This document shows positions 42,871 through 47,200 of a stretch of DNA of 47,809 nucleotides, piece after piece. Source of the stretch: Flavobacteriaceae bacterium (GTDB taxonomy: Bacteria; Bacteroidota; Bacteroidia; Flavobacteriales; Flavobacteriaceae); assembly GCA_020627885.1 (NCBI GenBank), contig JAHDGB010000004.1:1-47809 (forward strand), written 5' to 3'. The number at the start of each line of letters is the position of its first letter. Position 1 is the stretch's first letter. The notes beneath the pieces are model-generated. The model searched no databases. It was not told where the DNA came from and saw only the letters and a list, made by a program, of their open reading frames with translations. The translations under genes were made by a program, and so were the position numbers.

Positions 42871-43815
42871 CTAGCTGTTAAAGTGTTTCTTAATTTTATC
42901 GACTATAGTTTGAGCTAGTTTTTCTTTGCTTTCTATTGTCCAGCCAGCAACATGTGGAGATAGTATTACATTTTGTGCCTTTATCAAGTAATTAAATGCT
43001 TCGGGAAGCTCATTCGTTGTATTAAATAAGTTCTCAAACGATTTTTTTTCATATTCTAAAACATCCAAACCAGCACCTAATATTTTTTTGCTTTTTAAAG
43101 CAGAAACAAGATCTTTAGTAACTACACTTGTTCCCCTTGCTGTATTAATTAACCAAAACGGATTTTTAAAAGCATTAATAAATTTAGAATTAACCATATC
43201 TATAGTTAAAGGTGTTTGCGGGGTATGTAAACTCAATACATTAGCTTGCTGTTGTAGTTTGCTTAATGACACCTGTTTTGCATTGTCATCACCTACATTT
43301 GGTTTTATGTCATAGCATAAAACGGTAACATCAAACCCTCTTAGTTTTTTTGCAAACGCTTTTCCCATATTACCATAGCCAATTAATCCTACGGTTTTTC
43401 CATTTAGTTCTATACCTCTATTGTCTTCCCTTAGCCATAACCCTTGTCGTACCTCATGATCCGCCTTATTTAATTTGTTAAACAAGCTGAGCAACATCGC
43501 TAAGCTGTGTTCTCCTACTGCATTACTATTACCTTCTGGGGCAGCAATAAGCTTAACACCTTTGTTTTTAGCATAATTACAATCAATATTTTCTAAACCT
43601 GCACCAACACGGCCAATAAATTTTAATTGTTTTGCAGCATCTAAAAACGATTGGTCTATTGAAAAACGACTACGAATAATAAGACCATCATAGTTATGTA
43701 TATTGTTTTGTACTTCGGTTTTAGAAGACGTGTAATCCTCATCGTTGGTATAGCCTAACTGATTAAGTTGACTTATAAGTAATGGGTGGTTGCTGTCTAA
43801 ATGAAGTATTTTCAT
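42871..43815 (-). CDS. 2-hydroxyacid dehydrogenase family protein (phosphoglycerate dehydrogenase-like)
   Basis: A 314-residue NAD-dependent enzyme of the D-isomer-specific 2-hydroxyacid dehydrogenase family. The nucleotide-binding motif VGLIGYGNMGKAFAKKL is near residue 142. The catalytic set is recognisable: Arg in NTARGTSVV, Glu in VLEYEKKSF and His in LSPHVAGWTIES. It is shorter than classical SerA and lacks an ACT domain, so substrate assignment as 3-phosphoglycerate is not certain; glyoxylate or hydroxypyruvate are other options. It converges on the pseudogene at 42498. Confidence 0.88.
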   Translation of the reverse strand: MKILHLDSNHPLLISQLNQLGYTNDEDYTSSKTEVQNNIHNYDGLIIRSRFSIDQSFLDAAKQLKFIGRVGAGLENIDCNYAKNKGVKLIAAPEGNSNAVGEHSLAMLLSLFNKLNKADHEVRQGLWLREDNRGIELNGKTVGLIGYGNMGKAFAKKLRGFDVTVLCYDIKPNVGDDNAKQVSLSKLQQQANVLSLHTPQTPLTIDMVNSKFINAFKNPFWLINTARGTSVVTKDLVSALKSKKILGAGLDVLEYEKKSFENLFNTTNELPEAFNYLIKAQNVILSPHVAGWTIESKEKLAQTIVDKIKKHFNS

Positions 43816-45312: not shown

Positions 45313-45750
45313 ATGAAATCAATTTATTTATTCATTTTAATATTAACTACTCTCTCTTGTTCTGAAAGCAATTTTGAATATAAAGAACTTAAAGATTGTA
45401 ACTTTGAAATGATTAAACTCAAAGAACAAGTGAAAATTAAAATATTATCATATTCTGGAGGTAAATATTGTGATAATGATATTAAATATTATTATCAATT
45501 TATTGGCATAAATCAAGAAACCTTAGATACAGTTAGAGTATTAAGTCTATGTCAAAAATATGAATTTATAGAAGGCAAAAAACTTGGTTCATTCACTACT
45601 AAAGGAGATTTTTCTGATATAATAAACCAAATTGGTAATGAACTTGGTTTAGATAATAATAGCTATGAAAAGAAGGTAGTATTTAATAAAGAGCGATCTG
45701 ATTTTGAGTCAGGAAATCATAAGACTGCTATTGGTTCTCTTAGTTTCTAA
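45313..45750 (+). CDS. Hypothetical lipoprotein
   Basis: A 145-residue protein starting at the ATG 45313 (a TTG at 45304 would add three residues). The lipoprotein signal MKSIYLFILILTTLSC puts the lipid-attached Cys at residue 16. The mature part is Lys-rich with two further Cys (in DNDIKYYYQF and LCQKYEF contexts) and no recognised domain. It starts just after the end of the frameshifted secreted-protein gene and may have been expressed with it. It is cut off from its downstream neighbour by the IS110 element. Confidence 0.65.
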   Translation: MKSIYLFILILTTLSCSESNFEYKELKDCNFEMIKLKEQVKIKILSYSGGKYCDNDIKYYYQFIGINQETLDTVRVLSLCQKYEFIEGKKLGSFTTKGDFSDIINQIGNELGLDNNSYEKKVVFNKERSDFESGNHKTAIGSLSF

Positions 45751-45757
45751 TAAAAAC

Positions 45758-45796
45758 TACTTACAACAATTTGTATAATGCATATACCCCCGTATT
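45758..45796 (+). repeat. Flank of the IS110 element: cassette-like repeat, left part
   Basis: The sequence ACTTACAACAATTTGTATAA (45758-45777) followed by TGCATATACCCCCGTATT contains a small inverted repeat TACAA-CAAT-TTGTA. The ACAAC...TTGTATAAT shape resembles the gene-end repeats I associate with flavobacterial genomes; I cannot check copy number here. The probable second half lies at 47073-47171 on the other side of the IS element. Together the two halves would form a structured repeat of about 120-140 bp. Confidence 0.4.
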
Positions 45797-45812
45797 CTAT
45801 GATTAAAACAAG

Positions 45813-45833
45813 AAAAAAACAAACTATTTTGTT
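45813..45833 (-). terminator. Transposase terminator
   Basis: Reading the minus strand, AACAAA-ATAG-TTTGTT (45833-45818) is a 6-bp hairpin followed at once by five more T bases (45817-45813). It begins 10 bp after the transposase stop codon and would end the transposase transcript. Confidence 0.6.
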
Positions 45834-45842
45834 AATAAAGAT

Positions 45843-46838
45843 TTAAGCGGCAAACTTCATAGTATCTACATATGGGGTTTGCCTTTTTACAACTGCAAAA
45901 ACTCTAGCAATTAATTTATTTCTAATAATGTTAATTGTACTCATTTTGTTTTTGCCTTCCAAGACTCTTTTTTGATCATATTGTTTCATTTCAGGGTTGT
46001 GTTGTATGGCAGAGATAGCACACATATTAATAATAGCCTTCAGCTTTTTATTTGCTAAATGTGAGACTTTAGTTCTACCTTTTATACTCGATCCAGATTG
46101 ATAAGGAAAAGGAGCTATTCCTGAATAAGAAGCAAATTTTCTCCAATTTTGAAACTTAGTAAAATTATCTGTAAAAACAATCATGACTAAAGCTGTTTGC
46201 ATGCCAATTCCTTTGACACTAGTAACCAGTTTATAGGTTTGTTTTAACTCGGTGTTTTTATCTATAATACTTTGCATGGTCGTATTAATTTTATCTATTT
46301 GTTTGGTTAAATCTTTAATCATTTTTTGTTGTACTTCAAATATGATTTTATAGTCTTTTGAGGAATAAATTGTTTTTTGCTCTTTCAAAGTCCCTTTAAA
46401 CCCTGCTCTTTGTTTATTAAGTTTAGTACGTAATGATAAAAGGCTTTTTATCCGTAGTATATCATTATCAGGGAGTTTTGAAGGTTTTAATTCTTCTTTT
46501 AGGCGATAGCCATATAACGCAATACGTTTAGCATCAATTTGGTCATCTTTACCACGCGCTATTCCAATAGATCTTTTAATTTCTAATCCTGAAGCTATAA
46601 AAAAAGAATATTCTTTTTCTGTCAGAAAGAGTGACAATAAATGAGAATACATTCCAGTATGTTCAAAAACAAATAGCGTTTCTTGTCTTGAAAAAGAGGT
46701 ATTGTATACTATCCAATTTTCCATTAATTGAAAGCCTTTTTTTGTATTGTTAAATTGAGCAATAATTTGTTCTGAATCAATGCAAACATCAATTACAGTT
46801 TTACTTACATCAATGCCAATAATTTCTTTTGTTTTCAT
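45843..46838 (-). CDS. IS110 family transposase (recombinase)
   Basis: A 331-residue recombinase. The N-terminal RuvC-like DEDD domain has candidate metal ligands D10 (IIGIDVSKT), E59 (FVFEHTGMYS) and D99/D102 (GKDDQIDAKR). A coiled-coil middle (about 120-195) follows, then the C-terminal transposase domain (VKGIGMQTALVMIVFTDNF and SYSGIAPFPYQSGSSIKGR) with the conserved Ser in QSGSS that acts as the nucleophile in IS621. It is full length with no frameshift, so it is potentially active. In this family the recombinase is guided by a bridge RNA from the leader, and such an RNA is visible directly upstream. Confidence 0.95.
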   Translation of the reverse strand: MKTKEIIGIDVSKTVIDVCIDSEQIIAQFNNTKKGFQLMENWIVYNTSFSRQETLFVFEHTGMYSHLLSLFLTEKEYSFFIASGLEIKRSIGIARGKDDQIDAKRIALYGYRLKEELKPSKLPDNDILRIKSLLSLRTKLNKQRAGFKGTLKEQKTIYSSKDYKIIFEVQQKMIKDLTKQIDKINTTMQSIIDKNTELKQTYKLVTSVKGIGMQTALVMIVFTDNFTKFQNWRKFASYSGIAPFPYQSGSSIKGRTKVSHLANKKLKAIINMCAISAIQHNPEMKQYDQKRVLEGKNKMSTINIIRNKLIARVFAVVKRQTPYVDTMKFAA

Positions 46839-46863
46839 AATTTTGTTATTACAGATATTAAAT

Positions 46864-47016
46864 AGTTACTTAAACTAAGACCTTTAATAAGGACGGAAAC
46901 TGAAATTCTATATGGTTCTAAGTAACTTGAAAAGAGAACGGAGACTAATACAGGGGATGGCTCTTGAAAAAGCTAGCTGGCCGCCAAAGTTCACTCCGTT
47001 CTTTTTATGTTTTTAG
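46864..47016 (-). ncRNA. Candidate bridge RNA of the IS110 element
   Basis: Reading the minus strand, two large stem-loops follow each other between the element's left end and the transposase ATG. Stem A: AGAACGGAG (47002-46994) with CTCCGTTCT (46943-46935), loop of 50 bases. Stem B: AGTTACTTA (46927-46919) with TAAGTAACT (46872-46864), loop of 46 bases. Two consecutive loops of this size match the target-binding and donor-binding loops of bridge RNAs. In loop A the bases next to the two stem arms are TGAACTTT and CCCCTGTATTAGT, the expected position of left and right target guides. A TATTTTG -7-like box at 47030-47024 would place the 5' end near 47016. Confidence 0.6.
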
Positions 47017-47072
47017 TTATCAACAAAATAAAGGCTATTAATAAAGAAAAAAAGAAGCAAAAAAAGAAAGTT

Positions 47073-47171
47073 CATCATCATTATCATGATTTTATTTAAG
47101 TATATTTTTCTATTTGCTAATCTAAAGGCTCCCTTCGGGAAGCTAACACAACGTAAAAGATACGTTGTGTA
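47073..47171 (+). repeat. Cassette-like repeat, right part, with two hairpins
   Basis: GCTCCC-TTCG-GGAAGC (47128-47143) is a hairpin with a TTCG tetraloop and one mismatch. ACACAACGTA-AAAGA-TACGTTGTGT (47146-47170) is a perfect 10-bp hairpin and immediately precedes the TPM-domain gene. Such ACAACG...CGTTGTGT palindromes recall folded recombination sites and gene-end repeats of flavobacteria. The proposed companion half lies at 45758-45796 beyond the IS element. The stretch 46839-47200 has no gene; it holds the bridge RNA candidate and this repeat. Confidence 0.45.
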
Positions 47172-47200
47172 AACCATTTCCCTTTACGAACATACGAAAA

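What the first reader, a model, noticed from the sequence alone, without database searches (positions are those of the whole stretch)
46864..47016. IS110 leader folds into two consecutive large loops: a probable bridge RNA
Seen: two perfect 9-bp inverted repeats in tandem (46935-46943/46994-47002 and 46864-46872/46919-46927), each enclosing 46-50 bases, between the element end and the ATG of an intact IS110 recombinase, read in the same direction. Known: IS110-family recombinases such as IS621 use a leader-encoded bridge RNA with a target-binding loop and a donor-binding loop in that order. Inference: this is a bridge RNA of a flavobacterial lineage, with guides readable in the sequence.
Basis: partly seen in the sequence, partly recalled or inferred. 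Interest (0 to 1): 0.75.

Follow-up and report, generated by a model that had tools for sequence, protein, structure and literature searches.

The report
Flavobacterial IS110 bridge RNA
The leader of this flavobacterial jumping gene very probably encodes a two-loop guide RNA that tells its enzyme where to insert the element; the RNA structure and the guide-to-site matches recur in dozens of relatives, so it is a new lineage of the known "bridge RNA" kind, with some differences in detail.

Summary
The two stems exist exactly as described, on the minus strand, in the leader of an intact 331-aa IS110 recombinase. Alone they are weak evidence: tandem 9-bp inverted repeats arise in 16 of 200 random windows, and the fold z-score is -1.9. 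Comparison settles it. The same RNA heads related IS110 genes in Flavobacteriaceae and beyond. Its stems covary: 12 of 23 pairs change on both sides in an unfitted 18-sequence alignment. Loop 1 reads the insertion site: 32 distinct left guides match their own left flank at 6.84 of 9 positions versus 3.19 for other elements' flanks; later loci repeat this, 7.0 versus 3.17. Loop 2 follows the element's own end (7.44 of 8 versus 6.42). So this is a bridge RNA, target-binding loop then donor-binding loop. Caveat: the window copy's own left guide matches its site at only 5 of 9 positions, no better than background, though its right guide matches the first 4 of 4. Differences from IS621: no 5' stem-loop seen, and the second core base is shared by both ends in only 3 of 28 elements. 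No RNA or recombination data exist here. New variant of a known kind.

The parts
45793..47127 (-). whole IS110 element (about 1335 bp); ends placed to within about 1 nt because one C is shared by both junctions
   Evidence: ends CTTTAG... and ...ATAGAATA are those fixed by multi-copy relatives; the leader up to this left end is 79% identical to L009 over 126 nt, the aligned stretch running about 10 nt past the motif into both flanks, so the exact base rests on the motif
46861..47006 (-). bridge RNA body (match of model R1, positions 1-142)
   Evidence: the window sequence is one of the 18 used to build R1
46935..47002 (-). stem-loop 1 = target-binding loop (stem arms 46994-47002 and 46935-46943)
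46864..46927 (-). stem-loop 2 = donor-binding loop (stem arms 46919-46927 and 46864-46872)
46976..46987 (-). left target guide (12 nt; the 9 nt next to the core are 46976-46984)
   Evidence: position by homology; matches own left flank at only 5 of 9
46951..46956 (-). right target guide, core included (reads CA-GGGG; site has CG-GGGG)
46904..46911 (-). left donor guide ATAGAATT (element end is ATAGAATA, 7 of 8)
46881..46886 (-). right donor guide, reverse complement CCTTTA (left junction reads CCTTTA)
45843..46838 (-). IS110 recombinase, 331 aa; D10, E59, D99, D102 and S248 align with IS621 D11, E60, D102, D105 and S241
   Evidence: IS621 numbering from PMC11208158, matched to the PDB alignment by motif
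47128..47136 (-). left target flank (GAAGGGAGC)
45787..45792 (-). target core CG and right target flank GGGG

Best explanation
The leader encodes a bridge RNA. After excision as a circle (inferred), the RNA is transcribed and bound by the IS110 recombinase (inferred from IS621). The 5' stem-loop is the target-binding loop: its 5' side (9 nt) carries the same letters as the left target, and its 3' side (4 nt plus core) is complementary to the right target. The second stem-loop is the donor-binding loop and reads the element's own right end (ATAGAATA) and left end (CCTTTA) in the same way. The recombinase, which keeps all five residues essential in IS621, would then join target and donor. Shown here: structure, covariation, guide-to-flank and guide-to-end matching across the family, element ends, empty sites in two relatives. 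Not shown: transcription, binding, recombination, activity of this copy.
For: Covariation: 18-leader MAFFT alignment A2, 12 of 23 pairs change on both sides, score 0.279 versus 0.153 shuffled (0 of 500 reach it) and at most 0.134 when slid; 50 distinct rows aligned to the model, 22 of 23 pairs, 0.626 versus 0.216 (fitted alignment). Target guides: 32 unique left guides, 6.84 of 9 versus 3.19 mismatched, permutation p 5e-5; 28 right guides, 4.5 of 8 versus 2.12, p 5e-5. In one fixed register, left positions 1-9 match in 18-26 of 32 elements and positions 10-11 in 8 and 12; mismatched pairs match at 24-31% (57% at position 1). Right positions 1-4 match in 21-26 of 28 and positions 5-10 in 4-10. 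This is close to the 8-9 and 4-7 nt reported for IS110 (PMC11208160). Later loci with automatically found ends: 18 loci, 7.0 versus 3.17 of 9; first four right positions, 11 loci, 2.82 versus 0.95 of 4. Donor: 27 elements, 7.44 of 8 versus 6.42, p 5e-5. Recombinase matches IS621 (E 5.8e-17) and ISCro4 (4.1e-18) in PDB. Empty sites: 9 copies of AGACTTTGCGCAGC in G742 and 3 of TTCGACTCCGCTCA in G691; the reversed control patterns gave 0.
Against: The window copy's left guide matches its own left flank at 5 of 9; 6 of 32 flanks, its own included, score 5 with that guide. Its right guide scores 4 of 8, equalled by three and beaten by one of the 27 other right flanks; over the first four bases only it and L004 of 28 match fully. 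Its right guide reads core CA where the site has CG. One measure of covariation in A2, the number of pair types, does not exceed shuffles (22 versus 21.6). No second full copy in the genome (the genome is 81% complete). No expression data. An empty-site pattern for G684, and the G742 pattern in G652, found nothing. The single-sequence fold is only weakly better than shuffles, and single-sequence folds of some relatives (for example L013, L015) do not show both stem-loops. L072 has the RNA but no recombinase match in the fetched 3.1 kb.
Confidence: 0.94

Rival explanations
1. The leader is only a cis-acting regulatory structure (attenuator or translation control) of the recombinase mRNA.
For: It lies directly upstream of the ATG and folds as two stem-loops; a dual role is possible.
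Against: A control leader does not explain why the variable loop 1 matches the DNA next to each insertion over 9 plus 4 positions, nor why loop 2 follows the element's end variants.
Confidence: 0.03
2. The inverted repeats are chance or DNA-level repeats (for example subterminal binding sites) with no RNA role.
For: Tandem 9-bp inverted repeats occur by chance in 16 of 200 random windows; Rfam has no match at its thresholds.
Against: Changes on both sides at 12 of 23 pairs in an unfitted alignment, and none of 500 shuffles reach the covariation score; guide matching.
Confidence: 0.02
3. It is a bridge RNA by descent, but this copy is no longer programmed for the site in which it sits: the left guide changed after insertion, or the element landed at a poor match. 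Compatible with the main explanation.
For: Left guide 5 of 9 and, by eye, one base longer than most (12 instead of 11 nt before the core), right guide 4 of 4 next to the core; only one full copy found.
Against: ORF and catalytic residues are intact; donor guides still read both element ends.
Confidence: 0.4

Closest known systems
IS621 bridge RNA and recombinase (IS110 group; PMC11208160, PMC11208158)
   Same: RNA in the left end, target loop before donor loop, left guide of 8-9 nt, short right guide, core read by the guides, the five essential residues of the recombinase
   Different: No 5' stem-loop seen in this family (columns upstream of stem 1 unconserved; seven elements have only 23-24 nt between the left-end TTA and the RNA match). 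IS621 and related orthologues have CT cores at both ends, the T almost invariant; here the first core base is shared in 25 of 28 and the second in 3 of 28.
ISCro4 recombinase (PDB 9t56)
   Same: Best sequence match among solved structures, E 4.1e-18
   Different: Distant; its RNA was not compared here
ISEc21 and ISEc11 seekRNA (PMC11187229)
   Same: Non-coding region RNA guides target choice; abutted ends generate a promoter in the circle (passages)
   Different: ISEc11 is described there as of the IS1111 group; neither sequence was compared here

Membership tests
IS110 family (IS110 group) | DEDD RuvC-like domain plus Tnp domain with catalytic serine | tested here: met
   Pfam PF01548 and PF02371; D10, E59, D99, D102, S248 align with the IS621 residues
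IS110 family (IS110 group) | long non-coding left end carrying the RNA, short right end | tested here: met
   left end 289 nt (46839-47127), right end 50 nt (45793-45842)
bridge RNA | two consecutive stem-loops with internal loops | tested here: met
bridge RNA | first loop matches target on both sides of the insertion | tested here: met
   at family level; for the window copy itself only the right side next to the core (4 of 4), left 5 of 9
bridge RNA | second loop matches the donor ends | tested here: met
   window 7 of 8 on the left donor guide, CCTTTA on the right donor guide
bridge RNA (IS621 type) | 5' stem-loop before the target-binding loop | tested here: inconclusive
   none conserved; not modelled separately
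bridge RNA (IS621 type) | same core dinucleotide at both element ends | tested here: not met
   second base shared in 3 of 28, first in 25 of 28
bridge RNA | RNA expressed and bound by the recombinase; needed for recombination | not testable with these tools
   no transcript or biochemical data

The most novel reading that the evidence does not exclude
This Bacteroidota lineage is a bridge-recombinase branch in which donor and target need to share only one base (usually C) at the crossover; the second core base of the target is instead read by the right target guide (it matches in 23 of 28, versus 38% for mismatched pairs), so site choice is freer than with the CT core of IS621. The circle junction would double as a Bacteroidota-type promoter: TTG begins 19-20 nt from the right end in 23 of 28, to be joined to TAnnTTTG-like sequence at the left end in 24 of 32 (one-base variants counted, no control for the left-end count).
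Probability: 0.35. Interest if true: 0.6.

Novelty: new variant of a known kind. Interest (0 to 1): 0.42.

Why it matters
It extends bridge RNAs, with element ends, guides and natural targets readable together, to a set of Bacteroidota elements and gives a covariance model for them. If the relaxed core is real, such recombinases could reach sites closed to CT-core enzymes, and comparing them with IS621 would show how core choice is set.

Tried and rejected
The left end was first placed at AATAGCCTTTATTTTG (25 nt before the RNA) and then moved: the leader is homologous to that of L009 for 126 nt, through that spot and up to CCTTTAG, so the end lies 119 nt before the RNA. A scan of viral contigs found no relative; genome contigs gave 4 loci, one of them close; plasmids gave one partial match, 27% of the query at 66% identity. 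A search of the own genome for the site that the window's guide would prefer, allowing 3 mismatches, found one place with 3 mismatches, judged chance. Rfam at E up to 1 gave one unrelated weak match. The empty-site pattern for G684 found nothing; the G742 pattern was absent from G652. Relatives of the double-loop element L014 were sought in 198 genomes; at E 1e-110 only the query itself was found.

Rows dropped and limits of the guide test: 43 rows shown, 11 left out as near-duplicate guides. Not entered: L070 (contig edge), L072 (no recombinase found for orientation), L074, L048 and L049 (another architecture), L030-L035, and L044, L046 and L090 (RNA not located by exact search); most further copies of multi-copy elements were not entered. 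Right ends were taken as missing for L007, L014, L015, L017, L041 and L073; L007 and L017 had a candidate that I judged not credible. L066 was kept although its right flank fits its guide badly (1 of 8). Left ends were picked by hand from motif candidates and not blind to the loops; one search repeats the test with ends found by weight matrix on 19 later loci, 18 usable, not stripped of near-duplicates (for example L104 and L118), weak left-end scores included. The score takes the better of two registers for true and mismatched pairs alike; one search chose among three registers, so its left-hand border is partly by construction and one search gives the fixed register. A2 misaligns part of stem 2, which lowers that helix to 67.6% paired; A3 is fitted to the model and includes second and partial matches.

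Full report
WHAT IS THERE. The fold of 47020-46839 shows two tandem stem-loops. The ORF 46838-45843 minus (331 aa) is an IS110 recombinase. In PDB it matches ISCro4 and IS621, and D10, E59, D99, D102 and S248 fall on the five residues whose mutation abolishes IS621 recombination (PMC11208158, passages; positions). By themselves the repeats prove little: 16 of 200 first-order Markov windows hold a tandem pair, and the window has two other such spots.

RELATIVES. In 397 genomes of the family, the own one included, 32 hold a homologue at E 1e-60 or better. One of them, G072, has the contig length and place of the Flavivirga aquatica record found (list), which puts the window in Flavobacteriaceae. 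The leaders of 18 relatives, window included, align over their whole length with two stem-loops; single-sequence folds show both in many but not all. In this alignment A2, 12 of 23 pairs change on both sides, 89.8% of cells pair, the covariation score is 0.279 against 0.153 for shuffles, and sliding the partner lowers it to 0.134 or less; the count of pair types alone does not exceed shuffles. A covariance model R1 built from A2 matched 20 of 395 genomes of the order and 15 of 395 of the class, own genome included in both. Of 17 of the loci so fetched that I checked (L060-L074, L080, L082), 14 have an IS110 gene (31-42% identity, one segment 48%) in the same locus; L072, L074 and L082 gave no hit, L074 being cut by a contig end and L082 an internally deleted copy. 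Over 50 distinct rows, 22 of 23 pairs change on both sides (fitted alignment).

ELEMENT ENDS. Copies at different sites in the same genomes give the ends: the left end mostly starts CTTTAGATT(A/T)G, CTTTAGTTTG or CTTTACTTTG, the right end stops at ATAGAATA, TTGGAATA, TTAGAATG and the like. For the window the left end is CCTTTAGATTAGC at 47128-47116 and the right end ATAGAATA at 45800-45793. The window leader and that of L009 are 79% identical over 126 nt; the alignment runs about 10 nt past CCTTTAG into both flanks (CCGAAG...), so the exact base rests on the motif.

GUIDES. In loop 1 the 9 letters before the core position equal the left flank, and the 4 letters on the 3' side are the reverse complement of the right flank. 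Own flank versus other elements' flanks: 6.84 versus 3.19 of 9 for 32 unique left guides; 4.5 versus 2.12 of 8 for 28 right guides; permutation p 5e-5 each. In a fixed register, left positions 1-9 match in 25, 20, 22, 25, 26, 23, 18, 20 and 24 of 32, positions 10 and 11 in 8 and 12; right positions 1-4 match in 26, 23, 23 and 21 of 28, positions 5-10 in 4 to 10. On later loci, with ends found by weight matrix, 7.0 versus 3.17 of 9 (18 of 19 loci) and 2.82 versus 0.95 of 4 (11 loci). Loop 2 follows the right-end variants: 7.44 versus 6.42 of 8, 27 elements, p 5e-5. In L068 and L071, whose left junction reads CTATTA instead of CCTTTA, the right donor guide has changed with it. Undisturbed target sites exist in two relatives, 9 in G742 and 3 in G691; two other such searches, for G684 and G652, found none.

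THE WINDOW COPY. Its right target guide reads GGGG at its own site (4 of 4; only L004 of the 27 other flanks does as well) but scores 4 over 8 bases, equalled by three and beaten by one other flank, and reads CA at the core where the site has CG. Its left target guide matches at 5 of 9, a score that 6 of 32 flanks, its own included, reach with this guide. Its donor guides read both of its ends. So it is a bridge RNA by descent and structure, but its own insertion is not a good example of guide reading. The same genome has one more R1 match, an internally deleted copy at G000:C262 (L082) that lacks the second loop; its left guide matches its left flank 9 of 9, its right guide 1 of 8.

MECHANISM. 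By analogy with IS621 (PMC11208160: abstract, sections 7 and 12 and passages read; PMC11208158: passages): the circle's joined ends drive transcription; the RNA binds the recombinase; loop 1 pairs with the target and loop 2 with the donor; strands are exchanged at the core. Sequence evidence here covers guides, ends and protein. Transcription, binding and exchange are inferred. TTG begins 19 or 20 nt from the right edge in 23 of 28 elements, at most 4 at any other position of the last 60; the left end has TAnnTTTG (7), TAnTTTG (7) or TAnnTTAG (10) of 32, without a control count. TAnnTTTG is the flavobacterial -7 box (PMC9723704, passages). The upstream TTG box and its usual spacing I recall; they come from no call. 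A circle-junction promoter is therefore plausible but untested.

DIFFERENCES FROM IS621. No 5' stem-loop is conserved ahead of loop 1, and seven elements leave only 23-24 nt there. Of 28 elements the first core base is shared by both junctions in 25 and the second in 3; the commonest pattern, in 10, is CC at the left and CG at the right. In G742 the empty site AGACTTTG-CG-CAGC shows that only one C is shared, whereas in G691 CT is shared. IS621 and related orthologues are described as having CT at both ends with the second base nearly invariant. The donor core is read from the left junctions; no circle was seen.

NOVELTY. Bridge RNAs were predicted for 85.7% of the IS110 elements of ISfinder (PMC11208160 section 12), so the kind is known. 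Words beginning Bacteroid and Flavobacter do not occur in the main text of PMC11208160 or PMC11187229, and the capped lists of searches showed no title on a flavobacterial bridge RNA; supplements, preprint servers and most subscription papers were not seen. I file it as a new variant of a known kind because of the core and the missing 5' stem-loop.

Noticed in passing
L014:1236-1336, L015:1236-1316, L017:2669-2758(-): Three relatives carry a second target-binding loop upstream of the usual one, with similar but not identical guides and stems that differ compensatorily by eye (R1 second matches; sequences). In L017, by eye, the upstream copy reads the presumed right flank including the core base, the downstream copy without it. 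One search (4 papers listed) showed no title about double target loops.
   Followed up: partly
L042, L044, L020, L026, L046, L027, L047: Several elements of the 40%-identity clade sit at (C)AACG before attC-like repeats (CGTGTATGGTTAGTTGCG...TTATACACGTTGT), by eye; this recalls the IS1111-attC group (seen only in a reference list).
   Followed up: no
window 45740-45792 and 47128-47190: The window element's own flanks look, by eye, like two halves of a palindromic, attC-like repeat (TTACAACAATTTGTATAATGCATATACCCC and CTCCCTTCGGGAAGCTAACACAACG...CGTTGTGTAA); a weak similar stretch lies at 42999-43096 (65% identity).
   Followed up: partly
L082:1501-1610 (G000:C262): Internally deleted IS110 derivative in the same genome: left end, target loop, last codons of the recombinase and right end, no donor loop; left guide matches its site 9 of 9.
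   Followed up: partly
L051:1501-1598 (G326:C281): A genome of the same genus holds a remnant of a related element: 87% identity to window 45796-45892 (right end and last codons), no full copy found there.
   Followed up: no
L072:1501-1649(-): An R1 match without any recombinase match in the fetched 3.1 kb: a solitary or decayed leader.
   Followed up: no
L007, about 1296-1336: A long perfect hairpin (TTTTCTCCACCTTCAAAATAATATTTTGAAGGTGGAGAAAA) lies just upstream of the target loop in this one relative.
   Followed up: no
L013, L014, L015, L016, L017: Shared stretch TTGAAAAGAGGGGGTC(T/C)GGGGGAGACTCATAACT between the left end and the RNA in these elements, of unknown role.
   Followed up: no
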